Shown here: piece after piece, positions 9,740 to 37,494 of the stretch | How positions within the stretch are numbered: position 1 is the first letter of the stretch | Layout: each line of letters opens with the position of its first letter | Source of the DNA: a virus | Virus record (IMG/VR): IMGVR_UViG_3300048837_000795 | Coordinates: 1 to 64,000 of that record | Strand: one strand, 5' to 3' | Length of the DNA: 64,000 nt | Made by a program: the position numbers and the translations under genes | The notes under the pieces: model-generated | Database searches by the model: none | What the model saw: only the letters and a program-made list of their open reading frames with translations | Told to the model about the DNA's origin: nothing

Positions 9740-9988
9740 TTATTTGGGTATACCCGAATCTCCTCCTGGGGTGTAGAATAGGATATCGCCGGGGTCCACC
9801 TGGCGACCCAACCGAGATGAGAAAAAATCGCACAGCGTTACCAGGGTGGCATAGCTGATTGCCCCGCCCTTGCCGTTGCGCAGGTTATACGCCGTAGTGG
9901 GGGAAATACCGGCACGGGCCAGATCGATCGGTGTGGCCTCAGCCTCAACTAACAAACTTTCAACACGCAGCTCTATTGTTCCCGGCAT
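9740..9988 (-). CDS. CI/Cro-type (XRE) helix-turn-helix repressor, 82 aa
   Basis: The protein is a single DNA-binding domain: ATPIDLARAGISPTTAYNLR is the helix-turn-helix, followed by GGAISYATLVTLCDFFSSRL, typical of short XRE regulators. It lacks a LexA-type cleavage domain. It is transcribed leftward from a consensus promoter (10008-10036) whose spacer holds a dyad, so it probably represses itself and the rightward promoter at 10090-10118. This makes it the likely lysogeny regulator. Confidence 0.75.
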   Translation of the reverse strand: MPGTIELRVESLLVEAEATPIDLARAGISPTTAYNLRNGKGGAISYATLVTLCDFFSSRLGRQVDPGDILFYTPGGDSGIPK

Positions 9989-10007: not shown

Positions 10008-10036
10008 ATTGTATACTGTTAGTATTCCACTGTCAA
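10008..10036 (-). promoter_or_regulatory. Leftward sigma-70 promoter for the repressor, with internal dyad operator
   Basis: On the minus strand TTGACA, 17 bp, TACAAT. The dyad ATACT-GTT-AGTAT at 10013-10025 overlaps the -10 box and spacer and is a plausible repressor operator. Confidence 0.8.
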
Positions 10037-10089: not shown

Positions 10090-10118
10090 TTGACAATGCA
10101 CTAGAAAAGCCTTACAAT
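10090..10118 (+). promoter_or_regulatory. Rightward sigma-70 promoter
   Basis: TTGACA at 10090-10095, exactly 17 bp, TACAAT at 10113-10118, the same -10 box as the leftward promoter. It should drive the 10184-10834 genes, including the first sigma factor, and so act as the early lytic promoter. Confidence 0.85.
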
Positions 10119-10183: not shown

Positions 10184-10327
10184 ATGTCAGCCGTTTTCTT
10201 CACCCTTCACCCCACTGCTGCCCGCTCATTTGAGCAATGCAAAACCATCGCCGACCTGGCCCGCTCCGCTGTGGAGCTCGCGCCGGGTTTTCTGACGTTT
10301 TTCAAGATGCTCACAATTGGCCTTTAG
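10184..10327 (+). CDS. Small protein, 47 aa, leader of the sigma-factor operon
   Basis: ATG at 10184 follows CCAGGAGTACCGTATCA. The product starts MSAVFFTLHPTAARSFEQC and ends FFKMLTIGL. It lies 65 bp downstream of the rightward promoter and 9 bp before the sigma gene. A longer frame from 10047 is rejected because it spans the promoter. No family is recognised; a Cro-like or regulatory peptide role would be a guess. Confidence 0.6.
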   Translation: MSAVFFTLHPTAARSFEQCKTIADLARSAVELAPGFLTFFKMLTIGL

Positions 10328-10336: not shown

Positions 10337-10834
10337 ATGACTATTCAAATTACCGAACTTGCACCCACGCTCGAACGCGTAGCTTATAAATTCACCAGCA
10401 CCGACGAAGATGCCGCCGACTTCCTGCAGGACGCCATGCTGGGCCTGGTAGAATTTACCCAGTCAGACCCGAACGCGCTGAGTAATTCCAGAACCTACCT
10501 GGTCAACCGCGGCAAATGGGCCGGTCAGCAGGCCGCCGATAAACACCGCACAATGGAGAACACGCGGTCGACCAGCCTGGACGGCCCCGGCGTAACCTTC
10601 GCCGAGCTGCTGCCCGCCGGTACCCTCGACCCGCAGGAAGCCGCCGAGCAGGCCGAAACGATCGAGGAGCTGCTTTCGATGACCGACGATATCCCCGACG
10701 GTCCGAAAATGGTCAAGCTGATTTATCTCGGTTATTCCGAGAAAGAGATCGCCGAGACCCTGCACGTCTCCGCCGCGGCCATCAGCCAGCGCAAACATAA
10801 GTTGATCGCGCGCTGGCGCAATCTGCAAATCTAA
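10337..10834 (+). CDS. Sigma-70 family factor (ECF-like size), 165 aa
   Basis: It has a region-2-like helix set (DAADFLQDAMLGLVEF and following) and a region-4 helix-turn-helix near the C terminus (GYSEKEIAETLHVSAAAISQ). The linker is short, as in group IV sigma factors. It follows RBS AGGGGGACACG and is the main product of the rightward early promoter. It is a strong candidate to read motif B or A promoters downstream. A terminator follows. Confidence 0.8.
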   Translation: MTIQITELAPTLERVAYKFTSTDEDAADFLQDAMLGLVEFTQSDPNALSNSRTYLVNRGKWAGQQAADKHRTMENTRSTSLDGPGVTFAELLPAGTLDPQEAAEQAETIEELLSMTDDIPDGPKMVKLIYLGYSEKEIAETLHVSAAAISQRKHKLIARWRNLQI

Positions 10835-10854
10835 TTCACGAGCCACGCACCAGA

Positions 10855-10883
10855 AGCCCCACGGAAACCCGCGGGGCTTTTTT
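10855..10883 (+). terminator. Rho-independent terminator
   Basis: AGCCCC pairs with GGGGCT, followed by six T. It ends the early sigma operon before motif B copy 2. Confidence 0.85.
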
Positions 10884-10892
10884 GATTCTCGT

Positions 10893-10929
10893 GCTTAATT
10901 TTTTGCCGCGAAACCGGTTTTAAGTACAC
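10893..10929 (+). promoter_or_regulatory. Motif B copy 2
   Basis: GCTTAA, TTTTTTGCCGC, GAAACCGGTTTTA, then AGTACAC. It lies directly upstream of the AGGAG of the 10944 gene. Confidence 0.8.
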
Positions 10930-10943
10930 AGGAGAACGGAACG

Positions 10944-11351
10944 ATGGAGCAAAGCCAGCCTACCACCCGGCGCTATTTTGTGCCTGTGCCGGCAGGCGTA
11001 ACGGATGCGCACGGCCTGCCCGTGCCCGATATCGAGATTACCCGCATTGATTTTTTGGTAACAGGAGCCACCACCACCGTCAACAAAATGGGCATGAATG
11101 TTTTTGAAAAAACAATCGTAGCCGAGGGCAAAACGCATAAAAATTTTGACCTCGCCGCGGCGCTGGATTGGCTGCGCGTGCGCGGTTGGACCGTGCGCGA
11201 ATGGCCCGGCGGCGCCAGGGCGTGGCGTGATGGGCTCAAGCCGATCCGCAGCGCGCGTGAAATTATCCGGCTGCGGGATGAGCTTCGCGCTTATCCACGG
11301 CCGGAATTAGAGGGCAAGGCGCATACCCTTGACCTGGCATTTGATCTTTAG
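10944..11351 (+). CDS. Hypothetical protein, 135 aa
   Basis: It starts after AGGAGAACGGAACG, behind motif B. The N-terminal half has alternating beta strands (RRYFVPVPAG, EITRIDFLVTGATTTV). The middle has a tryptophan-rich helix (LDWLRVRGWTVREWPGG) and the C terminus is charged. It is co-transcribed with a possible single-strand-binding protein, so a replication or recombination role is possible. Not recognised. Confidence 0.65.
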   Translation: MEQSQPTTRRYFVPVPAGVTDAHGLPVPDIEITRIDFLVTGATTTVNKMGMNVFEKTIVAEGKTHKNFDLAAALDWLRVRGWTVREWPGGARAWRDGLKPIRSAREIIRLRDELRAYPRPELEGKAHTLDLAFDL

Positions 11352-11360
11352 GAGGCCAGA

Positions 11361-12128
11361 ATGGAACGGGAGAACTATTTAGAACTAATGTGCTTGCACC
11401 TCAGCCGGATTGCCGACTCGCTGGAGATTTTATCCCGACCGGGTAAGGACTATTCGCCCGATTATGTAATGCCCATCGGCGAGTTTGCCGGTTTTGATTG
11501 GGGATCAGTCAATATCACCGTGGTACGCGCTGACCGCGATGGGCCGACCCATTTGCAGTGGAACGGCCAGGTATATACCCGGCGCAGCCCCAGCAATAAG
11601 TTTGACCCGGCGATCTGGTACTCACGCGCTTCCGGCAAAAGCGAGGACGGCGAAACCGAATATACCCGCCTGATCACCTTCCGTGAGATCAAAGACGCTG
11701 ATCCGCTGGGGGATAAGACGCGGGCCGTGGTTGACCGCAACCGCCCCCAACAGCCCACGAACGGAACCAACAAAACGCCGGCACCTGCCGCCAACGGCGC
11801 GACCAAGCAGCAGCCAGCGCCCTCGCCCAGCCAGGCACCAGCCCCAACGACAAACAGCGCCGTCAAACCACTGGCGTCTGGTGAGCTGGTCTCTTACACC
11901 GAGTACATGCGCCGCGCGAAGGCCGGCAATATCACTGCCGAGGCCGCCATGTGGATTGCTCAGCAGATTCCCGTAAAGCCAGAAGATGATCACTCGGTAC
12001 CCGCCTCGTACCTGCAATTTTTCTACAATGCGAAGCACGCCGGATTTAAGCTGAGCGAGGCATGGAGCCATCTCAAGGAGTCCGGCTTCGATACTGAGGC
12101 CGCTACCGCAAAGCTGCCGCCCTTCTAA
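11361..12128 (+). CDS. Hypothetical protein, possibly single-stranded-DNA-binding-like, 255 aa
   Basis: Three parts are visible. An N-terminal beta-rich domain (HLQWNGQVYTRRSPSNKFDP, YTRLITFREI) could be an OB-type fold. A Pro/Ala/Gln-rich linker covers roughly residues 130-170. A C-terminal helical domain (EYMRRAKAGNITAEAAMWIA) follows. Compact fold plus disordered linker recalls phage SSB-like proteins, but no diagnostic motif is seen. RBS is AGGAGG. A terminator follows the stop. Confidence 0.55.
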   Translation: MERENYLELMCLHLSRIADSLEILSRPGKDYSPDYVMPIGEFAGFDWGSVNITVVRADRDGPTHLQWNGQVYTRRSPSNKFDPAIWYSRASGKSEDGETEYTRLITFREIKDADPLGDKTRAVVDRNRPQQPTNGTNKTPAPAANGATKQQPAPSPSQAPAPTTNSAVKPLASGELVSYTEYMRRAKAGNITAEAAMWIAQQIPVKPEDDHSVPASYLQFFYNAKHAGFKLSEAWSHLKESGFDTEAATAKLPPF

Positions 12129-12155
12129 CCCTACCAACTTCCCTTATCGGTACCC

Positions 12156-12190
12156 GGCCCGGCAGTTCCCCTGACTGCCGGGCCCCTTTT
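12156..12190 (+). terminator. Rho-independent terminator
   Basis: An 11-bp perfect stem, GGCCCGGCAGT with ACTGCCGGGCC, followed by CCCTTTTT. Confidence 0.85.
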
Positions 12191-12199
12191 TGCCAATTT

Positions 12200-12231
12200 G
12201 CTTAATTATTTCCCGCGAAACCGGTTTTAGG
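12200..12231 (+). promoter_or_regulatory. Motif B copy 3
   Basis: GCTTAA, TTATTTCCCGC, GAAACCGGTTTTAGG. It precedes the operon of the second sigma factor. Confidence 0.8.
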
Positions 12232-12257
12232 AAAACAAAACTATTAGGAGTAGATCT

Positions 12258-12455
12258 ATGCCCCCAAAAATCAAACCTCAGACAAAAGCCGTCGTGATGA
12301 TCACCCCCACCGGCACCTGCATTGTACGCACCGATGACGGCCGTCACGTCGCGCTGGCCCCTCAGCTGGCCGTAGACGTGGCGCGGACCATCCTCGATGA
12401 GGGCAAGCCCGCCATTTCACCGCCGCCGGCAAAAAGCGCCGGTTGGGTGCAGTGA
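12258..12455 (+). CDS. Small hypothetical protein, 65 aa
   Basis: ATG follows AGGAGTAGATCT. The product is a compact beta-type peptide (KAVVMITPTGTCIVRTDDGR) with a Pro-rich tail. It is the first gene behind motif B copy 3, 22 bp before the second sigma factor. Function is unknown. Confidence 0.6.
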   Translation: MPPKIKPQTKAVVMITPTGTCIVRTDDGRHVALAPQLAVDVARTILDEGKPAISPPPAKSAGWVQ

Positions 12456-12477
12456 CCCAGTTACCCAGGGGGACCGC

Positions 12478-13245
12478 ATGATACATGACCTGCTGACGGC
12501 TGAGGAAGAGATCGACCTGATCACCTGCGCGCGCGCCGGCGATACTGCCGCGCTGGAGTCGCTGGTCGAGCATAACCAGCGCCTGGTCTTCTCCATCGCC
12601 AACCGCTATTTTCATTCGGGTTTCGGCGGTGACCAGGACCTGGAAGACCTGGCGCAGTGGGGCAATATGGGCATGATCCATGCGATACGCAAATTTGACG
12701 CCCGCCGAGGCACGCGCTTCTCCACTTACGCAGTGCATTGGATCGACGCTTATATCCGGCGCTACGCCGGCGAACAAGCCAGGACCATCAGCATGACCCA
12801 GCGCGATACTGAGCGCCTGCGCAAGATCCGGCGCAGCCGTTCAGCGCTCACCATCCGGCTGCAGCGGGCGCCAACCGCCGCGGAGATCGCCGCCGACTGC
12901 GATATGGACGCCGCGTACGTCGCCGACTGGCTGCCGGCCCTGACCGCGCACGTGCGCCTCGACCGCGAGGTTGACCACGCTGCCGGCAATGATGACGCGC
13001 TGCACGAGATTATCAGCGCTGCCGACGATGACCATGACCCCGAGCGGGCCCTGGAACGCAAAGAGCTGGCCGAGCTGTTGGGCCGGCTCGACCCGCGCTG
13101 CCGGGAAGTAATCAACCGCCGCTTTTTCAACGAGCCGCCCGAGTCGCGCGCTCACATTGCCCAGCAGCTGGGCGTGTCGGTCGACTGCGTGCGCCGGCTC
13201 GAACAGCAGGCGCTGGAGATTATCCGGCCGCATTTTGGGGCTTAA
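12478..13245 (+). CDS. Sigma-70 family factor with regions 2, 3 and 4, 255 aa
   Basis: The start at 12478 follows AGGGGGACCGC; an upstream frame to 12397 lacks an RBS. Region 2 is clear (LVEHNQRLVFSIANRYFHSG, FSTYAVHWIDAYIRRYAGE). Region 3 is RAPTAAEIAADCDMDAAYVA. Region 4 is SRAHIAQQLGVSVDCVRRLE. It looks like a group-3 sigma factor lacking region 1. A second phage sigma factor implies a timed switch of promoter class. Its last codons lie inside motif B copy 4. Confidence 0.9.
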   Translation: MIHDLLTAEEEIDLITCARAGDTAALESLVEHNQRLVFSIANRYFHSGFGGDQDLEDLAQWGNMGMIHAIRKFDARRGTRFSTYAVHWIDAYIRRYAGEQARTISMTQRDTERLRKIRRSRSALTIRLQRAPTAAEIAADCDMDAAYVADWLPALTAHVRLDREVDHAAGNDDALHEIISAADDDHDPERALERKELAELLGRLDPRCREVINRRFFNEPPESRAHIAQQLGVSVDCVRRLEQQALEIIRPHFGA

Positions 13246-13276
13246 GTTTTCTGCGTGAAACCGGTTTTAAATCAGG
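13240..13276 (+). promoter_or_regulatory. Motif B copy 4
   Basis: GCTTAA (containing the sigma gene stop), GTTTTCTGCGT, GAAACCGGTTTTA, then the AGGAG of nrdG. Confidence 0.8.
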
Positions 13277-13288
13277 AGACCAAACACT

Positions 13289-13930
13289 ATGAAAATCAGA
13301 ATACACCGCATTATTCCCCAGTCCAGAGTCGACGGCCCAGGCGTGCGCACAGTTGTGTTTTTGCAGGGGTGCAGCCTGGCATGCAAGGGCTGCCAGAACC
13401 GCCATATCTGGCCGGCTGACGGCGGGCATGAGACCAACACCGCCGACCTGGCGCAGGCCCTGACCATCCTTTCCGGGCGCATCGGCAATGTCACCATCAG
13501 CGGCGGCGAGCCCTTCCAGCAGCCGGCAGCGCTGGCCGCGCTGATCACTGATCTGCGCAAGCACGGCACGGTCAAGCACCTGATCGTTTACACCGGCTAC
13601 ACCTGGGAAGAGCTGCACAGCGCCACCCACCCGGCCCGGCCATACCTGAGCGAGATTTTGCAGGGCGTGGACGTGCTGGTCGACGGGCGCTTTATCGCAA
13701 AGCTCGACGATCCGATGATCACCTACCGCGGCAGCCGCAATCAGCGGCCCATCGACGTGGCTGAGAGCCTGACCGTAGATGAGCTGGTGGTGCTGGACTG
13801 GGATCACCCCGAGGTGATCATCGGCGATGACGGCGAGCTGCTGCTGCCAATCGGACTCGCGGACGTATTTGCCAGCATGGGGGCTGTCAGGCAAAGTCGC
13901 ATGTGCGGCGAGACAGTCGATGTCAAATGA
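13289..13930 (+). CDS. nrdG: NrdG-like anaerobic ribonucleotide reductase activase (radical SAM)
   Basis: The CxxxCxxC iron-sulfur motif (GCSLACKGCQN, Cys 28, 32 and 35) and GGEP motif (ISGGEPFQQP) define a radical-SAM activase. Opening SRVDGPGVRTVVFLQGC matches NrdG. In anaerobes it makes the glycyl radical of class III ribonucleotide reductase. No nrdD is in the window, so it either serves a host or distal phage NrdD or has another glycyl-radical or peptide target. Start follows AGGAG. Confidence 0.85.
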   Translation: MKIRIHRIIPQSRVDGPGVRTVVFLQGCSLACKGCQNRHIWPADGGHETNTADLAQALTILSGRIGNVTISGGEPFQQPAALAALITDLRKHGTVKHLIVYTGYTWEELHSATHPARPYLSEILQGVDVLVDGRFIAKLDDPMITYRGSRNQRPIDVAESLTVDELVVLDWDHPEVIIGDDGELLLPIGLADVFASMGAVRQSRMCGETVDVK

Positions 13931-14130
13931 GCATATCCGAGGAGCGGGTTGCCCGGTTCGACGCGTACCGCGAAACGCTGAGCAAGGATGAGCGCGCGGA
14001 GCTGGATCGCATGGTCGTGGAGTGCTGCGACACGTTCCGCCGGCCCGGCGGCCAGTTTGGCGAGCGCATGGCCAAAGAATTGATTATTGCGCTGGTGGAC
14101 TTCAACCCCCGCCGGCAGGTAGTGAGGTGA
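13927..14130 (+). CDS. Small hypothetical protein, 67 aa
   Basis: ATG overlaps the nrdG stop as ATGA. The product is helical and charged (EERVARFDAYRETLSKDERA, MAKELIIALVDFNPRRQ). It is translationally coupled to nrdG and to the DUF5131 gene. Function is unknown. Confidence 0.6.
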   Translation: MSISEERVARFDAYRETLSKDERAELDRMVVECCDTFRRPGGQFGERMAKELIIALVDFNPRRQVVR

Positions 14131-14133
14131 GAG

Positions 14134-14940
14134 ATGGGCGAAACAACTGGTATTAGCTGGTGTGATCATACGTTCAACCCCTGGATAGGCTGCACGAAGG
14201 TGTCAGCCGGTTGTGATCTATGTTATGCGGAAACGCAGAACAACCGTTTTCAGTGGAATCCTGCCGGATGGGGCAAGGGCGCGCCGCGCAAACTTACGGC
14301 AGACGCCAATTGGATAAAGCCGCTGGCATGGGCAAAGCAGGCGATTACCGACGGCGTCTTGCGCCGCGTATTTGCCGGCAGTTTATGCGATCCGTTTGAT
14401 GACGAGGTTCCAAGCGCCTGGCGCGATCGCTACTTCACCTTGATCGATGACGTTGGAGAATACTGCCGACACTTCCGCACCGTTCCGGGGTCCGGTTTGG
14501 AATTTATGATCCTGACCAAACGAATCAAGGGCGCGTGGAAAAAACTTCCTGGCGAGTGGGTCGAGTACCTTCCCGAGTATGTACGGCTGGGCGTCACTGC
14601 CGAAAACCAACCAAATGCCGACCGCCGAATCCATGAGCTTTTCAGTACCTGGCGCGGCAAGAACTTTATCAGTGTCGAGCCAATGCTGGGCCCGCTCGAC
14701 TTAACCCATGATCTCGACGGTTACAACCCTTATGGCGCGAGTCTTGATTGGGTCATTGTTGGAGGAGAGTCTGGCGCCGGCTGTCGGCCCATGAACATAG
14801 ACTGGGCACGAAGCGTGCGCGATCAATGCAAAGAAGCTGGCGTTCCCTTTTTCTTCAAACAGATCGGTGGGCACCCGAATAAGCAGCACGACCCCGCCAG
14901 ATGGCCCGCCGACTTGCGTATCCAGGAGTTTCCAAAATGA
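14134..14940 (+). CDS. Phage Gp37/Gp68-family protein (DUF5131), radical-SAM-like
   Basis: The 268-residue protein opens with ISWCDHTFNPWIGCTKVS and a CX6CX2C cluster (GCTKVSAGCDLCYAE, Cys 20, 27, 30). It continues with FAGSLCDPFDD, EFMILTKR, ISVEPMLGPLD and WVIVGGESGAGCRPM, all hallmarks of the Gp37/Gp68 family common in phages. A metal- or FeS-dependent reaction is likely but the substrate is unknown. It lies two genes after nrdG, another FeS enzyme. Confidence 0.85.
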   Translation: MGETTGISWCDHTFNPWIGCTKVSAGCDLCYAETQNNRFQWNPAGWGKGAPRKLTADANWIKPLAWAKQAITDGVLRRVFAGSLCDPFDDEVPSAWRDRYFTLIDDVGEYCRHFRTVPGSGLEFMILTKRIKGAWKKLPGEWVEYLPEYVRLGVTAENQPNADRRIHELFSTWRGKNFISVEPMLGPLDLTHDLDGYNPYGASLDWVIVGGESGAGCRPMNIDWARSVRDQCKEAGVPFFFKQIGGHPNKQHDPARWPADLRIQEFPK

Positions 14941-16088
14941 CCATCGACACGAAACTGATCCTGCGCTCGATCGACCCGCGCCCTGGGTTTTTGCTCACCT
15001 GCTACCAGATGGAGCTCATGCAAGGCTACGTCCGCGAACTGGTCACCGCATATGAGGCCCAGGCGCAGCAGATCGAGGATCTGAAAGGGCAGTTGCCCAA
15101 ACGCGTATCTATCGCCGATGCATGGCCCGAAGAGTCGGAGTCGGTTCTGATCTTCCTGAACGGGGACGTTATACCGGCTTTCTGGCAGGAAGAGCAGGAA
15201 GGCGACTTTGAGAACGGCTACAAAAAATACCGTCAGTTCTATTACTGCCCCGACTGGGATAAATTCGAGCCGTTAGATGCTTATGGCTGTACGTTCGATT
15301 GGCAGGCGTTCCCAAAACCATCAGCCGGCGATCTAACCGACTATTCCCGCGCCCTGGCCAAAACTTACCCCTGGAAGGGCACCAGTCACCGCGCTGACGG
15401 CAATGCTGATGAGTTTGTCTGCATCCACTGCGGAGCAAGCATCGTAGATGACCCGGCGCAGTCTGAGCCGGAACACCACACAGATACCTGTATCTGGGCC
15501 AAAGCCGTGGCTTGCACGAAGGAAACGACCATGAAAAACAGATTGCTTGACCTGGTTGACCGCCTGGCAATGGCATGGATCAACCGCCGCATGGACCAGG
15601 AAGTTGCCGAGCTCAAGAAAGAGCCGGGTTACGAATCGATCCAGCTCCGCAAAGCCGAATTTGACGAAAACGGCTGGAGCATGGATATGGTGCACCGTGA
15701 CGTTGCCATCCTGGCAGCCAGCGCCGCCGAAATGCTCACGAAGCAAAACGCCAAAAACTATGTGCAGATGGTTATGTACCCAAAGGTTGATATGCAACCG
15801 GTTGAGGTCACCGTGCGCTGGTATTGGGGTGGGTTGACGCCGGCGCAATTAAACAGCCAGCTCCAGGATGAGCTGGACGCGGCAAAGGCTTTCCATCCGC
15901 GCGCGATGAAGCTGATCGGAAAACGTAAAAACTTTGTCGTGGTCGCTGAGGATGAGCCGTACTTTCCGACGGTTTACGCCCTGATCCGCGCCTACGAATT
16001 CTCCAATGGCCGCTGGACGGATGAAGATGAGCGTATCTATAGAGAGGCTATGCAAAAGGCAGGGGTTAGCGATGTGCCGACTGTATAA
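14937..16088 (+). CDS. Hypothetical protein with DUF551-like segment and zinc site, 383 aa
   Basis: ATG at 14937 overlaps the previous stop. The N-terminal third has a short coiled coil then a DUF551-like stretch (VLIFLNGDVIPAFWQEE, QFYYCPDW). A zinc-type module follows (FVCIHCGASIV, then EHHTDTC). The C-terminal half, helical then beta, may be a separate domain: MKNRLLDLVDRLAMAWINRR starts with its own internal ATG. It may be a fusion of two small phage genes. Function is unknown. Confidence 0.65.
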   Translation: MTIDTKLILRSIDPRPGFLLTCYQMELMQGYVRELVTAYEAQAQQIEDLKGQLPKRVSIADAWPEESESVLIFLNGDVIPAFWQEEQEGDFENGYKKYRQFYYCPDWDKFEPLDAYGCTFDWQAFPKPSAGDLTDYSRALAKTYPWKGTSHRADGNADEFVCIHCGASIVDDPAQSEPEHHTDTCIWAKAVACTKETTMKNRLLDLVDRLAMAWINRRMDQEVAELKKEPGYESIQLRKAEFDENGWSMDMVHRDVAILAASAAEMLTKQNAKNYVQMVMYPKVDMQPVEVTVRWYWGGLTPAQLNSQLQDELDAAKAFHPRAMKLIGKRKNFVVVAEDEPYFPTVYALIRAYEFSNGRWTDEDERIYREAMQKAGVSDVPTV

Positions 16089-16368
16089 GACCAAGAAGGG
16101 TGATTACGTCCGTCTATGCTACTACCACGGCAAGCGCAGGGGCGAGCGGATTCCGTTCTTTGATCTTCCAAAAGATATCGGTGATGATTTTATTTCCAGG
16201 CGCATCTTTCACATACCAAGAACCAAAGCAACGCTGAAAGTGATAAAACCATCTTACAACAAGGCACTGATGAAAAAAGAGCCTGTGCGCTGCCGGAAAT
16301 GTGGAGCGCCGATGAACCGGTCGAATTACGCAATCGGTATTTGTGACCTCTGCCAAAGGGGGAGATGA
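16072..16368 (+). CDS. Small zinc-ribbon protein, 98 aa
   Basis: ATG at 16072 lies inside the end of the previous gene. The basic body ends in a four-Cys ribbon (VRCRKCGAPMNRSNYAIG, then ICDLCQRG). It probably binds zinc and nucleic acid. Overlap with both neighbours shows coupling. Confidence 0.6.
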   Translation: MCRLYKTKKGDYVRLCYYHGKRRGERIPFFDLPKDIGDDFISRRIFHIPRTKATLKVIKPSYNKALMKKEPVRCRKCGAPMNRSNYAIGICDLCQRGR

Positions 16369-16790
16369 TGTGGCACAACACCTTCCCGACTAAACCTTAC
16401 GGCGCCCGCGGCATGTATTTCTACGAGGATATTCTCGCCGCCGGCATCCCAGAAACCGCAAAGCCGTACTGCTGCTATATCTGCACGATCATTTTCTACA
16501 AGCAGCCTTACAAAGTGGTCGACGGTGAGTTTGAGCGGTGGGGCGAGGCCGTCACGCGCTGGAATCTAATCGGGGAGCGCTGGACAGACCAGGACATGGG
16601 ATTCGGCTCGCTCGCCCCGCTGGTTTTGCACAACGGCCAGGTATACGAGCTGGCGACCGGGAACGTGATTTGGAAAGATGGCAAATGGGTAAATCAATGG
16701 ATCGGCTGGCGATTGCCTGCCGATGATAACAGAATAATCGAGCTCAAAAGGTTAGGCTGGGACCCATTCCAGCCAGGAGTGACGGAATGA
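16365..16790 (+). CDS. Hypothetical protein, 141 aa
   Basis: Rich in Trp and Tyr, with a Cys cluster (KPYCCYICTIIFYKQPY) and a beta-type end (VYELATGNVIWKDGKW). It overlaps the previous stop by 4 bp and the next start. No family is recognised. Confidence 0.6.
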   Translation: MMWHNTFPTKPYGARGMYFYEDILAAGIPETAKPYCCYICTIIFYKQPYKVVDGEFERWGEAVTRWNLIGERWTDQDMGFGSLAPLVLHNGQVYELATGNVIWKDGKWVNQWIGWRLPADDNRIIELKRLGWDPFQPGVTE

Positions 16791-16966
16791 ACGGGTTTGT
16801 TGTTTTCCTGGTAGTGGTGGTGATCATCCTTATTTTGGCGGCTCTGGCTGCCGTATTCGGTGGATTCCGGCAGGGGGCTGCGCGTGATGCCCAGATGCTG
16901 GCGCTGAACCATAAGAGCATGACGCCGGCCGAGTATGAAAAAGTGCGCCGGAATTACGAGGGGTAG
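16787..16966 (+). CDS. Small single-pass membrane protein, 59 aa
   Basis: ATG overlaps the upstream stop as ATGA. One N-terminal membrane helix (FVVFLVVVVIILILAALAAV) is followed by a short basic cytoplasmic-type tail (MTPAEYEKVRRNYEG). It lies in a run of three membrane-protein genes. Confidence 0.65.
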   Translation: MNGFVVFLVVVVIILILAALAAVFGGFRQGAARDAQMLALNHKSMTPAEYEKVRRNYEG

Positions 16967-16970
16967 ACCG

Positions 16971-17387
16971 ATGAACCCTATTTTACCAATCCTGATCCTG
17001 ATTGTAATTTTAATCTTCGTCAGCCTGTACGCCGGCAAGAAACAGCAGCGCGTCAAGCAGCTCGAAGCGAAGCTGAAACGCCAGCGAGTGGCGGCAGCCG
17101 CGAAGAAAGCGAAGGCTAAACGCCCCCGCCGCAAACTGTTCGGCCTGTTCACCCTGATGCTGCTGTTATCCGCATGCGGCGCGCGCGTGGAATACATCGA
17201 CCCTGCCGGCGCCTTTGTCTACCCGGTGGATGGGGTAGCGGTGCTGGTCACTGAGAGTGGTGAGTATACGCTCACCGGCGCGAGTCTGCCCGCCGGATGC
17301 TACCAGCTCGACCCGCCGGCAGCCGGCCAGACTCGCGGCGCTGCCTCGTGGGTGGACGCGGACAGCTGCAAGGATGGTGCGCAATGA
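16971..17387 (+). CDS. Membrane protein with internal lipobox-like motif, 138 aa
   Basis: An N-terminal membrane helix (ILPILILIVILIFVSLYAG) is followed by a strongly basic, helical segment (QLEAKLKRQRVAAAAKKAKA). A second hydrophobic run ends in LLLSAC, a lipobox. A beta-type domain with two Cys follows. The layout recalls a fused or nested spanin pair, or an internal start making a lipoprotein, but neither is shown. Confidence 0.6.
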   Translation: MNPILPILILIVILIFVSLYAGKKQQRVKQLEAKLKRQRVAAAAKKAKAKRPRRKLFGLFTLMLLLSACGARVEYIDPAGAFVYPVDGVAVLVTESGEYTLTGASLPAGCYQLDPPAAGQTRGAASWVDADSCKDGAQ

Positions 17388-17857
17388 GAGCGCTGATCTA
17401 CGCTTCCCCCATCCTCACTGCCGGCCTGGCCGCGTCCCTCTATGGATGGACCGCGCTGGACATTGGCACAATCGTCGGCCACTGCATGGCGTTCTTCTTT
17501 GCCTACCTGCTGGTCTTGCAGGTGATCACGCTCTTATTCCTGGGCCGGCTGGCCAGGGCGATGTATTTTCAGGCCGGCTTCGCCCCGGTCGCGCTCGGTA
17601 TGCTTACCCTGTTTGGCCTGCTGCTGGGTAAGGCCCTGAACGCGCCGCTGACAGCGCTTTACCAGACTACCGCACCCACGTCGGCGGCCTTCCAGCTGAC
17701 CAATGCGCTGTACGGGGTGGTTGGCATCGCCATGCTGCTGTGGCCAGTGGCGACCATCGTCTGGGCGATTGCCGTGCCGCACTGTGACGAGGCTGAGGCG
17801 GAGATGCTGGCAAAAGAGCGGGCGTGGTTGTCTAGGCCTGCACGAGCCCCTGAGTGA
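17384..17857 (+). CDS. Multi-pass membrane protein, 157 aa
   Basis: ATG at 17384 overlaps the previous stop. About four hydrophobic segments are visible: MRALIYASPILTAGLAASLY, CMAFFFAYLLVLQVITLLFL, a third around PVALGMLTLFGLLLGKAL, and YGVVGIAMLLWPVATIVWAI. It ends with a short charged tail whose codons form the terminator stem. Function is unknown. Confidence 0.65.
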   Translation: MRALIYASPILTAGLAASLYGWTALDIGTIVGHCMAFFFAYLLVLQVITLLFLGRLARAMYFQAGFAPVALGMLTLFGLLLGKALNAPLTALYQTTAPTSAAFQLTNALYGVVGIAMLLWPVATIVWAIAVPHCDEAEAEMLAKERAWLSRPARAPE

Positions 17858-17872
17858 TCAGGGGCTTTTTTA
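17845..17872 (+). terminator. Rho-independent terminator overlapping a stop codon
   Basis: AGCCCCTGA pairs with TCAGGGGCT around GTGA, followed by six T. The stop of the membrane-protein gene lies inside it. Confidence 0.85.
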
Positions 17873-17890
17873 TTCCAGGGTCATTTCAGA

Positions 17891-17922
17891 ACGGATAGTT
17901 GCAGTTTGTTCTATTTATCCGT
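17891..17922. repeat. Inverted repeat, possible operator
   Basis: ACGGATA and TATCCGT, 7 bp each, 18 bp apart, lie just upstream of the 17930-17956 promoter. Confidence 0.45.
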
Positions 17923-17929
17923 AACCCCT

Positions 17930-17976
17930 TGTATTGTTTGATTGCGTGTGTATAATATAAGCATACACACGCAATC
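17930..17976 (+). promoter_or_regulatory. Promoter with a perfect 14-bp inverted repeat around its -10 box
   Basis: TTGTAT (about 17929-17934) with roughly 16-bp spacing precedes a perfect TATAAT at 17951-17956. GATTGCGTGTGTAT (17940-17953) is inverted exactly at 17963-17976, so a dimeric regulator bound here would block the promoter. It drives 18002-18965. Confidence 0.75.
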
Positions 17977-18001
17977 AATAAAGCAAACAGGGAGATAACA
18001 A

Positions 18002-18346
18002 ATGGACGCACTAGAGGGTTTTGAACACAAGCACAACAATCAGATTACGCTCAATTCGAGCATCGGCAAGATCGAACTGACCTACCGCACGCACGACGGC
18101 GAAGCGCAGGAATGGAAAGAGGGGATGGGGAGCCTTTTCGAAACACTAGAGGATCTTCCATATGAAGAACCCGCCCGCAATCAGCCCTCCCATTTCCAGG
18201 CGGTACTCGTCAGCGAAGACAACAAAATCCGCTTTATGGCCCGCGAAACCACCGCAAGTGAAGCTATCAAATCGCTCTACAAACAGGAGGCGGTCAGCCG
18301 CTTCGAGGCTGAGTTTTACCCCCAGGGCGCTGAAATCAACTACTAA
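18002..18346 (+). CDS. Hypothetical protein, 114 aa
   Basis: ATG follows GGGAGATAACAA. The sequence is beta-rich then helical (NQITLNSSIGKIELTYRTHD, TASEAIKSLYKQEAV), ending in a short strand. It is first in an operon with a ribbon-helix-helix candidate and an HTH protein. No family is recognised. Confidence 0.6.
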   Translation: MDALEGFEHKHNNQITLNSSIGKIELTYRTHDGEAQEWKEGMGSLFETLEDLPYEEPARNQPSHFQAVLVSEDNKIRFMARETTASEAIKSLYKQEAVSRFEAEFYPQGAEINY

Positions 18347-18390
18347 AAATCTGCCCCGCTGGTCGGGCCAAAGTCCAGCAAGGATATTCG

Positions 18391-18732
18391 ATGACCCCAC
18401 GCGGTGGATCTGGCAGAGGGCAAGGGCGAAAGCCACGCGAAAACGCCAAACGGCACAACGTAATTTTAGAAAATGATGTCTGGGAATATCTCAGCAAAAC
18501 CAACGCATCGGCAGAGATCGAAAGGATTACCAGGATGGAAATGGAAAAGAAACACTTACTCGAATTGGCAGAGGCGATCTACTCAGAGGTCAGCGGCGCG
18601 GACAATAAGACGGAGCACGCCACCACGGTTGGGGAGATCTACGATTGGCTGTACGAGGGCGATGATGATTACGCGACTGCGGATCTGGCATACCTGGTGC
18701 GCGAGTGGCGTGCATACAACAGTGCAGAATGA
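18391..18732 (+). CDS. Putative ribbon-helix-helix DNA-binding protein, 113 aa
   Basis: The N terminus GGSGRGQGRKPRENAKRHNV is the Gly/Arg-rich head often found before small phage DNA-binding domains. A strand and helix (HNVILENDVWEYLSKTNA) fit a ribbon-helix-helix fold. The C-terminal half is acidic. RBS is AAGGATATTCG. It may bind the dyads upstream of the operon; that is inference. Confidence 0.55.
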   Translation: MTPRGGSGRGQGRKPRENAKRHNVILENDVWEYLSKTNASAEIERITRMEMEKKHLLELAEAIYSEVSGADNKTEHATTVGEIYDWLYEGDDDYATADLAYLVREWRAYNSAE

Positions 18733-18965
18733 GCGGGCGCCCAGACATCAAAAGCCTCAACCACGTGGCGCGCGTCATCGCCCTGCAGCGCGCCCGGCGC
18801 ATGGGGTGGCTGGAAGGCAGATCGCTCCAGGAGATTGGAGCGGAGCTGGGGGTGAATAGGTCAACGGTAATGCGCAATCTCCGCGACCTGGACGAAATCG
18901 AGGCACTGGCAGAGGAATACCTGACAGCACTTGGACCAAAGATCATCACCAAAGCCCCGGCATAG
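18729..18965 (+). CDS. Helix-turn-helix protein, 78 aa
   Basis: ATG overlaps the previous stop. A clear helix-turn-helix (SLQEIGAELGVNRSTVMRNL) is followed by a short helix. It resembles terminase-small-like or sigma-region-4-like HTH modules. It could be the autoregulator acting on the 17940-17976 dyad. The terminator stem lies in its last codons. Confidence 0.65.
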   Translation: MSGRPDIKSLNHVARVIALQRARRMGWLEGRSLQEIGAELGVNRSTVMRNLRDLDEIEALAEEYLTALGPKIITKAPA

Positions 18966-18981
18966 GCCCGGGGCTTTTTTT
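18953..18981 (+). terminator. Rho-independent terminator
   Basis: AGCCCCGG with CCGGGGCT around CATAGGC, then seven T. It is followed at once by motif A and motif B. Confidence 0.85.
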
Positions 18982-18994
18982 ATTCCCTATGCAA

Positions 18995-19015
18995 TTATCA
19001 AAGTAATCCGATAGA
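18995..19015 (+). promoter_or_regulatory. Motif A copy 3
   Basis: TTATCAAAGTAA, TC, CGATAGA. It sits between the terminator and motif B copy 5, heading the 19071 operon. Confidence 0.65.
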
Positions 19016-19017
19016 TC

Positions 19018-19054
19018 GCTTAATTTTTTGCGCCGAAACCGGTTTTAAGTACAC
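19018..19054 (+). promoter_or_regulatory. Motif B copy 5
   Basis: GCTTAA, TTTTTTGCGCC, GAAACCGGTTTTA, AGTACAC. It begins 2 bp after motif A copy 3, forming a tandem pair. Confidence 0.8.
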
Positions 19055-19070
19055 ACCAACGGAGGCGCAA

Positions 19071-20309
19071 ATGTTACAAACAACCGATCCAAAAACCAGT
19101 ATCTCCGACCTGACCGGCCTCGCGCCCGAGCAGATCGGCGCGCAGTATTTACAGGTTGACGTGCTCAAGCAGGAAGGCGTTTTGATCAACCTGGATATCG
19201 CCGGCAGCAGCATGTTTGTCTGCGGCGCAGACTGGGGCGAGCTGGGGGTGAGCGGCGACTCGACCCGCGCCGCGCGCATGACCCCGGGCCGCAAATTCCT
19301 ATACCCCAAAGCCGCGGTAAACAAAATCAACAGCGTGGTCACCAGCATGCGCCAGGCATTGGAGCGTTACTCCTACGACCTGACCGGCTTCCGGCCCTCG
19401 CGTTATATGCACTATAAGGTTTACGGCCACTGGCGCAAGGAATGGGACCAGCTCCTGGAGCGCTTCAACGCGGTCAAGGCGGAGCTGATCGCCATGCACG
19501 ACCAGGCGGTTGATGAGCTGGCCGACGAATTCCGCTCAATCGCCGCCGAGGCCTGGGCTGCCAACGGGCACCAGCCGCTCTTTTTCAAGGGCGTCAAATA
19601 CTCGGACCTGGACGAATTCACCGACGCGGTCGTGGCCCGAGTGCTGTCAAAGATGCCCGACGTGGAAACGATCGAGGCCGGCATGCACGCTGATTACCGC
19701 GTATCGATGCTCTACGGCCTGGAAGAGATTGCCCGGGCCGAGGCCAACGCTACCCGCATCCGCGAACAGGCCGAGGCTGAGCTGGCAAAGGCGAAGGACG
19801 AACAGCAAGCCGCGTACCTCAACAGCGCTATTCTCCAGGAGCAATACAACCACCAGGAACGTATGCTGCGGCTGGAAGAGCAGGAGAAAGAACTGGCGAT
19901 CGAGGCCATGATGCACGCCGAAGCTGAGCACGCTCGTGCTCAGCTGAAAGAAATCGTCAGCCCGTATCAAGAGGTATTCATCGCGCTGCGCAACCAGATC
20001 GCGCAGGACGCCACCGAGATGCTGGCCAGTGTCCAGAAGAACGGATTCTGTAAAGGAAAAATAGCTGAGCGGGGCAGGGGATTGCTTGACCTGTACGAGC
20101 TGATGACCATCGGCGAGGACGCCACGCTGCGGGGCCGGCTGGTCGAGCTGCGCAACGCCATCGGCACGATCGGCGATGACCGGCCCAAAGACGCTGCCCC
20201 GCGCGATACCGCGCAGGTTGTTTCCGCGCTGGAGTCGATCCGCGAACTGGCTCATTCAGCCGCGCAGGACCTGGCTGCCGGACCGTCAAGATTTTCATTT
20301 TTGGAATAA
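19071..20309 (+). CDS. Large coiled-coil protein, 412 aa, unknown function
   Basis: The N-terminal domain (about residues 1-170) includes LKQEGVLINLDIAGSSMFVC and a helix around SVVTSMRQALERYSYDLTGF; it faintly recalls DUF3150 proteins. The centre (about 225-300) is a long coiled coil rich in Glu, Ala and Gln (NATRIREQAEAELAKAKDEQ). The C terminus ends PSRFSFLE, echoed by PSRFALLE at the end of 27708-27998. RBS is GGAGGCGCAA behind the tandem A/B element, so high regulated expression is likely. Confidence 0.6.
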   Translation: MLQTTDPKTSISDLTGLAPEQIGAQYLQVDVLKQEGVLINLDIAGSSMFVCGADWGELGVSGDSTRAARMTPGRKFLYPKAAVNKINSVVTSMRQALERYSYDLTGFRPSRYMHYKVYGHWRKEWDQLLERFNAVKAELIAMHDQAVDELADEFRSIAAEAWAANGHQPLFFKGVKYSDLDEFTDAVVARVLSKMPDVETIEAGMHADYRVSMLYGLEEIARAEANATRIREQAEAELAKAKDEQQAAYLNSAILQEQYNHQERMLRLEEQEKELAIEAMMHAEAEHARAQLKEIVSPYQEVFIALRNQIAQDATEMLASVQKNGFCKGKIAERGRGLLDLYELMTIGEDATLRGRLVELRNAIGTIGDDRPKDAAPRDTAQVVSALESIRELAHSAAQDLAAGPSRFSFLE

Positions 20310-20319
20310 GGGGAATCGC

Positions 20320-20724
20320 ATGGACTATCCTGAAATCGCGTACGACGAAATCAAGCATTCCATCCCCGACGGCCTGGCCGAGCGGGTGCTGGCTGAGCTG
20401 CAAAAGCACGTCGGCAAGGATAACCGCATCTCACGCCTGGCGCTGGTCGAGTCTACCTGCAACGTGCATTTAGAGCGCTCAGCGCTGGCCAACAGCACCT
20501 ATGACCGGCAGGTGCGCCTCGTGCTGGATGAGCTGCAAGGGCGTTACCCGATTCTTTCATCCTCGGGCGCCGGCGGCTACTACTACGCATCCAGTGCCGA
20601 CGAAATCGCCGCGTATGCCGCTGAGCTCAACAGCCGGGCGATGAAGCTGCTCAACAAATCAAAGCGGTTGGTACGCCAGGCAAAGCGCTTCCAGCGCGAT
20701 GTGCAGATGGGGCTGGGGATATGA
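20320..20724 (+). CDS. Hypothetical protein with winged-helix-like fold, 134 aa
   Basis: The start at 20320 follows AAGGGGAATCGC; the longer frame overlaps the previous gene. The sequence alternates helices and a possible wing (ISRLALVESTCNVH, VRLVLDELQGRYPILSSSGA, GGYYYASSADEIAAYAAEL), as in small winged-helix phage proteins. The tail is basic (KSKRLVRQAKRFQR). DNA binding is plausible. Confidence 0.55.
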   Translation: MDYPEIAYDEIKHSIPDGLAERVLAELQKHVGKDNRISRLALVESTCNVHLERSALANSTYDRQVRLVLDELQGRYPILSSSGAGGYYYASSADEIAAYAAELNSRAMKLLNKSKRLVRQAKRFQRDVQMGLGI

Positions 20725-20909
20725 AAGACAAGATCCTCGAATACTGTTCAATCTGCGACGCGCCGCTGGACGCCGATAACTGCTACGGCACGGATGATTA
20801 CCCGCTCTGCCGTGAGCATCACGAAAAGTTTTATGACGCGGTCGATTTTATGTTAACGCTGTCTGGGCATGAAAAGGCAGCGCCGGTTCAGCTCAGCCTG
20901 GAGATTTAA
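20721..20909 (+). CDS. Small zinc-finger protein ending in a clamp-binding-like peptide, 62 aa
   Basis: A four-ligand site (EYCSICDAPL, then YPLCREHHEKF) fits a treble-clef or zinc ribbon. The last six residues, QLSLEI, match the QxxLxL/F hexapeptide by which bacterial proteins bind the DNA polymerase sliding clamp. This may be a clamp-tethered adaptor. It overlaps the previous gene by 4 bp. Confidence 0.6.
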   Translation: MKDKILEYCSICDAPLDADNCYGTDDYPLCREHHEKFYDAVDFMLTLSGHEKAAPVQLSLEI

Positions 20910-20911
20910 CC

Positions 20912-21148
20912 ATGACCCACAAAATGATCCTAGACACCCACACGCCCGACTCTGCCCCGCTTGAATTCTACTGCCCGACCTGCGGCCGGCGCATCCAGAT
21001 CACTACCCAGCCGGCCGGCAGAGTCGTGCTGGTGCCAGGCGACGCCAATGCCCAGCACGTGGGCGGCGTGGGCGTCGAGATCCAGGCCGAGATCACCGAC
21101 CCATATCTGGCAGTCTGGGAGGCGTATCTCAAGGATAAGCTGGCATGA
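20912..21148 (+). CDS. Small zinc-ribbon protein, 78 aa
   Basis: The CPTCGRR knuckle follows an acidic head. The second half is beta-type (AGRVVLVPGDANAQHVGGVG). Only one CxxC pair is seen, so metal binding may need dimerisation. It is coupled to its neighbours. Confidence 0.55.
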   Translation: MTHKMILDTHTPDSAPLEFYCPTCGRRIQITTQPAGRVVLVPGDANAQHVGGVGVEIQAEITDPYLAVWEAYLKDKLA

Positions 21149-21345
21149 TCTGCGCTGAGCGCAACCGGCTGATCGACAAAACCCGGGCCGATCCAAAGGC
21201 GATCAACGAGCTGCGCTCTCACATTGCCGGCTGCCCGGAGTGCCTGGATTTTATCCGGTCCTTTCCAGCCGATGGCCCGCCGCCGCCGGAAGAGCCAGAG
21301 CCTGGCCATGCGCCGGCGGTGATCGGGCAGATAGCCATCGAATAG
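21145..21345 (+). CDS. Mini anti-sigma-like zinc protein, 66 aa
   Basis: The HxxxCxxC signature (SHIAGCPECLDFI) is that of zinc-binding anti-sigma (zf-HC2/ZAS) domains, with a further Cys at residue 3. The rest is a helix and a Pro/Glu-rich tail, so it is much shorter than membrane anti-sigmas. In a phage with two sigma factors it may hold one of them in check. Assignment rests on the signature alone. Confidence 0.45.
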   Translation: MICAERNRLIDKTRADPKAINELRSHIAGCPECLDFIRSFPADGPPPPEEPEPGHAPAVIGQIAIE

Positions 21346-21380
21346 CTTAAGTTTTTGCCGCGAAACCGGTTTTAGATCAG
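21345..21380 (+). promoter_or_regulatory. Motif B copy 6
   Basis: GCTTAA, GTTTTTGCCGC, GAAACCGGTTTTA, GATCAG. The previous stop abuts its first base. Confidence 0.8.
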
Positions 21381-26034: not shown

Positions 26035-26750
26035 TCACGTTGATCCCCCTCGACCGCAAAGGCATTGCCTGGACGCAGCGGGTCGTCACTGAATATCACT
26101 ACCTGCATAAGCCAGTTGATGCGCGCTGCTCCGTCGAGGGGTACGAAATCCAGCTGTCAAACTATGGGTTTGCCGGCGTGCTGCTGTTTGGGCGTCCTCA
26201 AGCAACGAAGTGCCGGGACTGGTACGGCTCGGTCGAAGATGCGCAGGCCGGGCGATGCGAAGTGACTCGCTGGCAGGTGCTCAATCTGGCCCGGGTCTGG
26301 ATTTGTCCCGAATTCCAACCGGGCGGAGCGCATTGGGAATATTGGAAAGAAAACGGCGGTAATACGGCGCTGCGCTATTACCTTCCGGGCTTTGTGGATC
26401 GCAAAGACGTCTTTCGCTCTACCCTGGCCAGCGACGTGCTCAGGCTGGCAGCGGCGCAGATTGGCCTTGATTATCTTCTACGCCGGCCGCCCTGCTTTCT
26501 GGAAGAGCCTTACGAGATCCGCTGGCTGCTCTCATACTGCGATACCCGACTGCACAAAGGCACGATCTACCAGGCCGCCGGCTTCGAGCTGTATAGCACA
26601 AACGATGACGGCATTCAGACCTGGCGCATCCAGCTGCCCGCCCTGACTGACGATCAAGATAACCAGGTGCGGCAGGCCTCGCTGATCTCCCCACGCTCCA
26701 ACCGGTACCGAGCACAAAGATCCCAGCTCACGTTTGATTTTTCCGCTTAA
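26031..26750 (+). CDS. Mom-like DNA-modification acyltransferase-fold protein, 239 aa
   Basis: Features shared with the phage Mu Mom/GNAT-like group: an early YHYLHK motif (about 23-28), FAGVLLFGRP, LNLARVWICPEF, and the late KGTIYQAAGFELYS. Mu Mom converts adenine in DNA to a carbamoylmethyl form that blocks restriction. The last residues, QLTFDF, fit a sliding-clamp-binding hexapeptide, which would place modification at the replication fork. Assignment is by motif memory. It ends inside motif B copy 7 (GCTTAA supplies its stop). Confidence 0.65.
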   Translation: MITLIPLDRKGIAWTQRVVTEYHYLHKPVDARCSVEGYEIQLSNYGFAGVLLFGRPQATKCRDWYGSVEDAQAGRCEVTRWQVLNLARVWICPEFQPGGAHWEYWKENGGNTALRYYLPGFVDRKDVFRSTLASDVLRLAAAQIGLDYLLRRPPCFLEEPYEIRWLLSYCDTRLHKGTIYQAAGFELYSTNDDGIQTWRIQLPALTDDQDNQVRQASLISPRSNRYRAQRSQLTFDFSA

Positions 26751-26780
26751 TTTTTCCGCGCGAACCCGGTTATAGATCAG
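26745..26780 (+). promoter_or_regulatory. Motif B copy 7 (most divergent)
   Basis: GCTTAA, TTTTTCCGCGC, GAACCCGGTTATA, GATCAGGAG. It has two substitutions in the otherwise fixed core. Confidence 0.7.
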
Positions 26781-31342: not shown

Positions 31343-31380
31343 GCTTAATTTCTTGCGCTGAAACCGGTTTTAAGTACAGG
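31343..31380 (+). promoter_or_regulatory. Motif B copy 8
   Basis: GCTTAA, TTTCTTGCGCT, GAAACCGGTTTTA, AGTACAGG. It heads the AAA+ gene. Confidence 0.8.
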
Positions 31381-33087: not shown

Positions 33088-33125
33088 GCTTAAGTTTTGG
33101 TGCTGAAACCGGTTTTAAGTACAGG
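33088..33125 (+). promoter_or_regulatory. Motif B copy 9
   Basis: GCTTAA, GTTTTGGTGCT, GAAACCGGTTTTA, AGTACAGG. It heads the DUF1257/DUF2997 operon. Confidence 0.8.
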
Positions 33126-34271: not shown

Positions 34272-34330
34272 CTGCGTTATTTGCCCGGCGAAAATTATTA
34301 TAACGCAGAAATCTGGGTCTATAATCATGG
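34272..34330 (+). promoter_or_regulatory. Inverted repeat and TATAAT box upstream of 34354 gene
   Basis: CTGCGTTAT (34272-34280) is inverted exactly at 34300-34308. A TATAAT follows near 34320. The inverted half reads GCGTTATAAT on the minus strand, the motif C core. It is a regulated promoter candidate. Confidence 0.45.
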
Positions 34331-37482: not shown

Positions 37483-37494
37483 CAGTATAACGCG
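37483..37494 (-). promoter_or_regulatory. Motif C box before HNH gene
   Basis: Minus strand reads CGCGTTATACTG. It shares GCGTTATAMTG with boxes at 52.7, 55.7 and 58.9 kb. Confidence 0.5.

What the first reader, a model, noticed from the sequence alone, without database searches (positions are those of the whole stretch)
10337..21345. Two phage sigma factors and a possible mini anti-sigma protein
An ECF-sized factor under the early promoter and a group-3-like factor under motif B form a plausible cascade. A 66-aa HxxxCxxC protein could be a minimal anti-sigma.
Basis: partly seen in the sequence, partly recalled or inferred. Interest (0 to 1): 0.75.

Follow-up and report, generated by a model that had tools for sequence, protein, structure and literature searches.

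The report
Phage two-step sigma factor cascade
A complete temperate phage of an uncultured Chloroflexota bacterium carries two of its own RNA-polymerase sigma factors and two phage-specific classes of promoter-like sites, laid out so that one sigma probably switches on the next; the tiny 'anti-sigma' protein suggested with them is most likely just a small zinc finger.

Summary
Both sigma genes are real. Sigma1 (10337-10834, 165 aa) is ECF-like. Sigma2 (12478-13245, 255 aa) has regions 2, 3 and 4. The window is 64,000 nt of a 65,423-nt phage record whose ends overlap by 130 nt (closed genome). It has an integrase, a Cro/C1-type repressor, divergent near-perfect sigma-70 promoters and an attP-like tRNA-Lys piece whose 11 exact genome matches are all Chloroflexota. 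The early promoter is followed only by a 47-aa ORF, sigma1 and an intrinsic terminator. Motif B (GCTTAA-N11-GAAACCGGTTTTA) starts right behind: 9 copies, none in shuffles, each 19-37 nt before a ribosome site plus ORF; one heads the sigma2 unit. It is not a promoter class of 386 host-class genomes. A different motif, GCGTTATAMT, occurs 8 times, all on the late strand. Simplest reading: host sigma -> sigma1 -> motif B -> sigma2 -> late motif C; which sigma reads which motif is inferred. The 66-aa protein has zinc ligands C3-H26-C30-C33, but scores below Pfam's cut-off, lacks the fourth helix, lies 8-10 kb from both sigma genes and has no detectable relatives: its anti-sigma role is weakly supported. 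A new variant of SPO1/PBSX-type phage sigma control.

The parts
9740..9988 (-). Cro/C1-type repressor-like protein, 82 aa
   Evidence: Pfam HTH_26 27.1 bits, cut-off 22
10008..10036 (-). sigma-70-type promoter of the repressor gene, TTGACA-17-TACAAT
   Evidence: 11 of 12 consensus bases
10090..10118 (+). early sigma-70-type promoter, TTGACA-17-TACAAT
   Evidence: 11 of 12 consensus bases; its -35 box lies in YTGTTGACARTG, found only at the two divergent -35 boxes
10184..10327 (+). 47-aa ORF with AGGAG, first ORF of the early unit
   Evidence: sequence
10337..10834 (+). sigma1, ECF-like sigma factor, 165 aa
   Evidence: TIGR02937 above cut-off; top PDB fold matches are ECF sigma factors
10852..10885 (+). 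intrinsic terminator closing the early unit
   Evidence: hairpin of -19 to -20 kcal/mol with T run
10893..10922 (+). motif B, right behind the early unit
   Evidence: 0 mismatches
12156..12187 (+). intrinsic terminator before the sigma2 unit
12200..12229 (+). motif B heading the sigma2 unit
12258..12455 (+). 65-aa ORF ahead of sigma2
   Evidence: AGGAG, 28 nt after motif B
12478..13245 (+). sigma2, 255-aa sigma factor with regions 2, 3 and 4
   Evidence: Pfam r2 61.5, r3 29.4, r4 33.5 bits, all above cut-off
13240..13269 (+). motif B, overlapping the sigma2 stop codon
7541..7570 (-). motif B heading the leftward replication unit
   Evidence: DnaD/DnaC-like helicase loaders and a Holliday-junction resolvase downstream
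19018..19047 (+). motif B heading the unit that ends with the 66-aa gene
21145..21345 (+). 66-aa C3-H26-C30-C33 protein (the candidate mini anti-sigma)
   Evidence: zf-HC2 E 0.015, 15.8 bits, below the 22.2 cut-off
21345..21374 (+). motif B heading the helicase-methylase unit
26745..26774 (+). motif B, variant copy
   Evidence: 2 mismatches
31343..31372 (+). motif B heading the AAA-ATPase unit
33088..33117 (+). motif B, copy
34297..34306 (-). motif C (weakest)
37484..37493 (-). motif C
52721..52730 (-). motif C
55652..55661 (-). motif C
58919..58928 (-). motif C (three more at 64779, 65099 and 65226 of the record, outside the window)

Best explanation
The phage runs its lytic programme through its own sigma factors. 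(1) A Cro/C1-type repressor covers two divergent host-sigma promoters [promoters and shared -35 sequence shown; repression inferred]. (2) When repression lifts, host polymerase makes a short early transcript with a 47-aa ORF and sigma1, stopped by an intrinsic terminator [anatomy shown]. (3) Sigma1 joins host core polymerase and starts the motif B units: both DNA-metabolism arms and the sigma2 unit [motif B as a phage-specific promoter: strong; sigma1 as its reader: inferred]. (4) Sigma2 then directs polymerase to motif C promoters of the virion and lysis genes on the opposite strand [inferred]. The 66-aa protein, last gene of a motif B unit, is most likely a small zinc-binding phage protein of other function.
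For: Sigma1 and sigma2 are sigma factors. The only two TTGACA-(15-19)-TAnnnT matches in the whole record are the divergent pair at 10008-10118. A terminator follows sigma1 and motif B starts a few bases later. Motif B: 9 copies with one fixed spacing, none in shuffles; each 19-37 nt before a Shine-Dalgarno plus ORF on the same strand; 4 of 9 directly after a terminator. CTTAAT and GTTTTA stand 17 bp apart, sigma-70-family spacing. Motif B is phage-specific: 386 host-class genomes hold 11 matches at up to 2 mismatches, against 34 for the reversed control. Motif C: 8 GCGTTATAMT sites, all on the late strand, shuffle mean 0.18; 6 of 8 lie 40-93 nt before an SD plus ORF.
Against: No transcription or binding data, and no relatives in which sigma and motif could be seen to change together. 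The conserved GAAACC just upstream of the -10 looks like an extended -10 that a sigma with region 3 (sigma2) would read more naturally than an ECF-type sigma. Motif C has no clear -35, and 5 of 8 copies are followed within about 45 nt by the start of an intrinsic terminator, so late genes may need something more, such as antitermination.
Confidence: 0.55

Rival explanations
1. Sigma2, not sigma1, reads motif B and amplifies itself (its own unit has motif B), first made by read-through past the terminator after sigma1; sigma1 serves motif C or another set.
For: Sigma2 has region 3, which suits the long conserved GAAACC next to the -10; the -35 CTTAA resembles sigma-32's CTTGAA, and sigma2's VHWIxAxI in region 2.4 resembles RpoH (own knowledge).
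Against: It leaves the early unit, with only sigma1 and a 47-aa ORF before a strong terminator, without an obvious purpose; sigma2's family scores do not favour RpoH (RpoS 143.6, SigBFG 140.9, RpoH 108.7 bits).
Confidence: 0.2
2. Motif B is an operator (palindrome AAACCGGTTT) for a phage regulator on top of promoters read by the host sigma; the two phage sigma factors act elsewhere, for instance on the host.
For: The core contains a perfect 10-bp palindrome (sequence); phages with sigma factors that alter host programmes are known (PMC9429907).
Against: The rigid GCTTAA at -35 distance and the TTTTA end are as conserved as the palindrome, and sigma-70-like promoter matches in 9-28 kb are no more than in shuffles (7 found, mean 9.7).
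Confidence: 0.15
3. The 66-aa protein is a minimal zinc-binding anti-sigma (ZAS-like) that restrains sigma1 or sigma2.
For: C3-x22-H26-x3-C30-x2-C33 fits the ZAS ligand pattern (definition PMC4598750); AlphaFold2 gives three helices at 4-13, 17-28 and 31-38; weak zf-HC2 match.
Against: Below the Pfam cut-off; model confidence low (pLDDT 64) and no anti-sigma among fold matches; no fourth, sigma2-domain-binding helix, which defines class I anti-sigma domains (PMC7406223); the tail is proline-rich; not next to either sigma gene; no relatives.
Confidence: 0.12
4. One or both phage sigma genes are decayed passengers and do not direct phage transcription.
For: Sigma1's region 4 is below the Pfam cut-off (19 vs 25.7 bits).
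Against: Both ORFs are intact, with ribosome sites and positions in compact units; phage-specific promoter classes need some phage specificity factor.
Confidence: 0.07

Closest known systems
Bacillus phage SPO1 (gp28 middle sigma, gp34 late) and SP10
   Same: Phage-encoded sigma factors serve middle and late genes in sequence (PMC9429907).
   Different: SPO1 is strictly lytic (PMC9429907); here the phage is temperate, sigma1 is ECF-sized and sits directly under a switch promoter next to a repressor gene.
PBSX defective prophage of B. subtilis (Xre repressor, Xpf sigma)
   Same: Temperate element with an Xre repressor and a group IV (sigma2 plus sigma4 domains) sigma, Xpf, as positive control factor (PMC10141391; Xre from the reference list of PMC4243946 and own knowledge).
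   Different: As far as I know PBSX has one sigma step; here a second, larger sigma follows, with two separate promoter classes.
Phages phiEco32 (gp36) and 7-11 (gp47)
   Same: Host sigma-70 early promoters, then a phage sigma with its own promoter class; 7-11's is bipartite, GTAAtg-(16)-aCTA (PMC8948821).
   Different: One sigma per phage; podoviruses of enterobacteria; promoter sequences unrelated.
Class I zinc-binding anti-sigma factors (RsrA, ChrR, RsiW)
   Same: HxxxCxxC plus a further Cys ligand in the 66-aa protein.
   Different: No fourth helix, no adjacent sigma gene, below family cut-off.

Membership tests
ECF (group 4) sigma factor, for sigma1 | member of the sigma-70/ECF superfamily by curated model | tested here: met
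   TIGR02937 54.4 bits, cut-off 42.9
ECF (group 4) sigma factor, for sigma1 | only sigma2 and sigma4 domains, no region 3 | tested here: met
   165 aa; r2 at 6-56 and r4-type matches at about 102-160, no r3; two helical parts joined by a low-confidence linker 74-97
ECF (group 4) sigma factor, for sigma1 | region 4 match above the Pfam cut-off | tested here: inconclusive
   Sigma70_r4_2 19 bits, cut-off 25.7: below it; but the whole-length ECF model passes and the fold search ranks ECF sigma factors first over the full length
ECF (group 4) sigma factor, for sigma1 | binds core polymerase and a specific promoter | not testable with these tools
   needs biochemistry
Group 3 sigma factor, for sigma2 | regions 2, 3 and 4 present, no region 1.1 | tested here: met
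   r2, r3, r4 above cut-offs; 255 aa
Group 3 sigma factor, for sigma2 | closest to group 3 rather than group 1 or 2 | tested here: inconclusive
   RpoS 143.6, cyanobacterial RpoD/SigA 142.9, SigBFG 140.9 bits, none near its cut-off
Class I zinc-binding anti-sigma (ZAS), for the 66-aa protein | HxxxCxxC plus a fourth Cys/His ligand | tested here: met
   C3, H26, C30, C33
Class I zinc-binding anti-sigma (ZAS), for the 66-aa protein | family model above cut-off | tested here: not met
   zf-HC2 15.8 bits, cut-off 22.2; no NCBIfam match
Class I zinc-binding anti-sigma (ZAS), for the 66-aa protein | three-helix bundle plus a fourth helix binding the sigma2 domain | tested here: not met
   three helices, then no structure from residue 39 (low confidence)
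Class I zinc-binding anti-sigma (ZAS), for the 66-aa protein | gene next to the sigma gene it controls (usual, not universal) | tested here: not met
   about 10.3 kb from sigma1 and 7.9 kb from sigma2
Class I zinc-binding anti-sigma (ZAS), for the 66-aa protein | binds and inhibits a sigma factor | not testable with these tools
   needs co-purification and transcription assays
SPO1-type phage sigma cascade | sequential phage sigma factors with separate promoter classes | tested here: inconclusive
   two sigma genes and two phage promoter-like classes found; order in time and readers not shown

The most novel reading that the evidence does not exclude
A temperate phage whose lysis-lysogeny switch has essentially one output, an ECF-type sigma factor, which by itself opens a two-step sigma cascade over almost the whole genome, with late promoters that sit in front of terminators and so add an antitermination or small-RNA step, and a checkpoint by a minimal anti-sigma.
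Probability: 0.15. Interest if true: 0.75.

Novelty: new variant of a known kind. Interest (0 to 1): 0.5.

Why it matters
Most well-studied temperate phages use antitermination or activators after the switch; a repressor that gates little more than an ECF sigma, followed by a second sigma, would be a compact design in a phylum (Chloroflexota) whose phages are little studied. The promoter classes and two sigma factors form a small, testable and probably host-orthogonal expression set.

Tried and rejected
Relatives: sigma1, sigma2, the 66-aa protein and motif B in IMG/VR gave none; the single motif B pattern match, L011, lies inside a polymerase-like gene of an unrelated contig. Sigma1 in 396 host-class genomes: only cellular ECF factors. 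Sigma2: matches are cellular principal-type sigma factors with longer frames. Portal relatives exist in 29 genomes; stretches around eight of them were read, and they share only portal, capsid, terminase or integrase with this phage; the one sigma match among them (G090) is a 400-aa cellular-type factor. Motif B read with GAAAC as an ECF -35 (which would put starts on the ATG codons) was rejected: the sequence 22 bp further on is not conserved and all units have a Shine-Dalgarno there. Motif A as a promoter was rejected at the sites where its TATA half runs into the Shine-Dalgarno; an operator fits better. The 66-aa match in a host genome (L033) lies in no convincing gene. A first shuffle test of motif B used a wrong spacing and is void (corrected).
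Full report
What the window is. The window is bases 1-64,000 of a 65,423-nt virus record. The record's first and last 130 nt are the same with one mismatch, so the genome is very likely closed. It has an integrase (8135-9115), a Cro/C1-type repressor-like gene on the minus strand (9740-9988), terminase, portal, capsid and endolysin-like genes on the minus strand from about 35 kb on, and helicase loaders and a resolvase leftward of 7.5 kb. Right behind the integrase lies a tRNA-Lys-like stretch (about 9190-9250). A 39-nt piece of it matches 11 genome records exactly, all Chloroflexota, mostly Anaerolineales. I infer a temperate phage of an Anaerolineae bacterium.

The two sigma factors. Sigma1 passes the curated sigma-70/ECF model (54.4 vs 42.9 bits). 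Pfam region 2 is just above its cut-off and region 4 below. It aligns with cellular ECF factors of the host class at 21-27% identity, with the DxxQ of region 2.2 and the region 4.2 helix-turn-helix kept. Its predicted structure, of moderate confidence (pLDDT 68), finds ECF sigma factors first in the PDB: M. tuberculosis SigH, E. coli SigE, B. quintana RpoE, B. subtilis SigW. Sigma2 has regions 2, 3 and 4 above cut-off and scores about equally with RpoS, RpoD/SigA and SigB/F/G models. 'Group-3-like' describes its layout but not a proven descent.

The early unit. The only two TTGACA-(15-19)-TAnnnT matches in the record are divergent, one for the repressor gene and one for the rightward unit. Both -35 boxes lie in the same 12-mer YTGTTGACARTG, found nowhere else in the record, as expected if one repressor covers both. 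The rightward unit holds a 47-aa ORF (10184-10327) and sigma1, and then a -20 kcal/mol hairpin with a T run. Motif B begins a few bases behind it.

Motif B. GCTTAA-N11-GAAACCGGTTTTA occurs nine times (up to two mismatches to the reference pattern) and in none of 100 shuffles. All copies keep the same spacing, point along the genes and lie 19-37 nt before a start codon with a Shine-Dalgarno. Four follow directly on intrinsic terminators; two overlap the stop codon of the gene before, that of sigma2 and that of the 66-aa gene. CTTAAT and GTTTTA are 17 bp apart. It is not a host promoter class: 386 genomes of the host class hold 11 matches at up to two mismatches against 34 for the reversed pattern, and the viral contigs hold one chance match. 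So a phage factor should read it. The units it heads include replication, helicase-methylase, AAA-ATPase and sigma2.

Motif C. GCGTTATAMT occurs eight times, all on the minus strand from 34.3 to 65.2 kb, against 0.18 in shuffles. Six copies lie 40-93 nt before a Shine-Dalgarno plus ORF. There is no clear -35. At five copies a terminator hairpin starts within about 45 nt (a looser form of the same test is met by 20% of random stretches).

How it most likely works. The layout is explained most simply by a relay: repressor lifted, host polymerase makes sigma1, sigma1 opens motif B units, one of these makes sigma2, sigma2 opens the late strand. Shown: the genes, promoter-like motifs, terminators and their order. 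Inferred: which sigma reads which motif. The best rival is sigma2 reading motif B, because the conserved GAAACC beside the -10 would suit a sigma with region 3.

The 66-aa protein. C3, H26, C30 and C33 make a complete set of zinc ligands of the ZAS type (PMC4598750), and the model has three helices. But the family match is below cut-off, the defining fourth helix (PMC7406223) is missing, the gene is in the motif B unit 19071-21345 and far from both sigma genes, no relative was found, and at least four other small proteins of this phage carry CxxC pairs (20721-20909, 20912-21148, 16114-16368, 25295-25732). If an anti-sigma exists, the small ORFs that share units with the sigma genes (47 aa before sigma1, 65 aa before sigma2) are at least as good candidates by position; they show no anti-sigma signature that I could recognise.

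Comparison. Sequential phage sigma factors are known from SPO1 and SP10 (PMC9429907), a group IV sigma in a temperate element from PBSX (PMC10141391), and bipartite phage-sigma promoters from 7-11 (PMC8948821). What I have not found described is the combination: temperate, ECF-type sigma first, larger sigma second, two separate promoter classes. The paper search covers open-access papers only, so this is no proof of novelty.

Noticed in passing
1626-1651, 9104-9122, 18995-19013, 23856-23874, 31320-31338, 33054-33072, 41929-41947, 55690-55715, 59187-59205: Palindromic motif TATAGnnTTAYnnnARTAAnnCTATA, both halves clear at 1626-1651 and partial elsewhere; three copies sit 3-14 nt upstream of motif B and others at gene starts: looks like a dispersed operator.
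   Followed up: partly
34306, 52730, 55661, 58928 (-) and 64779 of the record: At these late motif C copies a strong intrinsic terminator begins within about 45 nt, before the next gene: suggests antitermination or short RNAs.
   Followed up: partly
17938-17978: Perfect 16-bp inverted repeat around a TATAAT-containing stretch, upstream of the gene at 18002-18346: looks like a strong operator-promoter.
   Followed up: no
26031-26750: Mom-family protein (Pfam Mom, 35 bits, above cut-off), a DNA-modification family; a PAPS-reductase-like gene (24142-25290) and a helicase-methylase (21395-23833) lie nearby.
   Followed up: no
18705-18965: 86-aa protein with a sigma-region-4/HTH_38-like helix-turn-helix; a candidate binder of the palindromic motif.
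   Followed up: no
1-130 and the record end (L009): 130-nt overlap of the record's ends with one mismatch: very likely a closed genome.
   Followed up: yes
9190-9250: tRNA-Lys(CTT)-like 5' half behind the integrase gene, probably attP; points to Anaerolineales hosts.
   Followed up: yes
34309-34373: 23-nt inverted repeat (91%) around the start of the gene at 34354.
   Followed up: no
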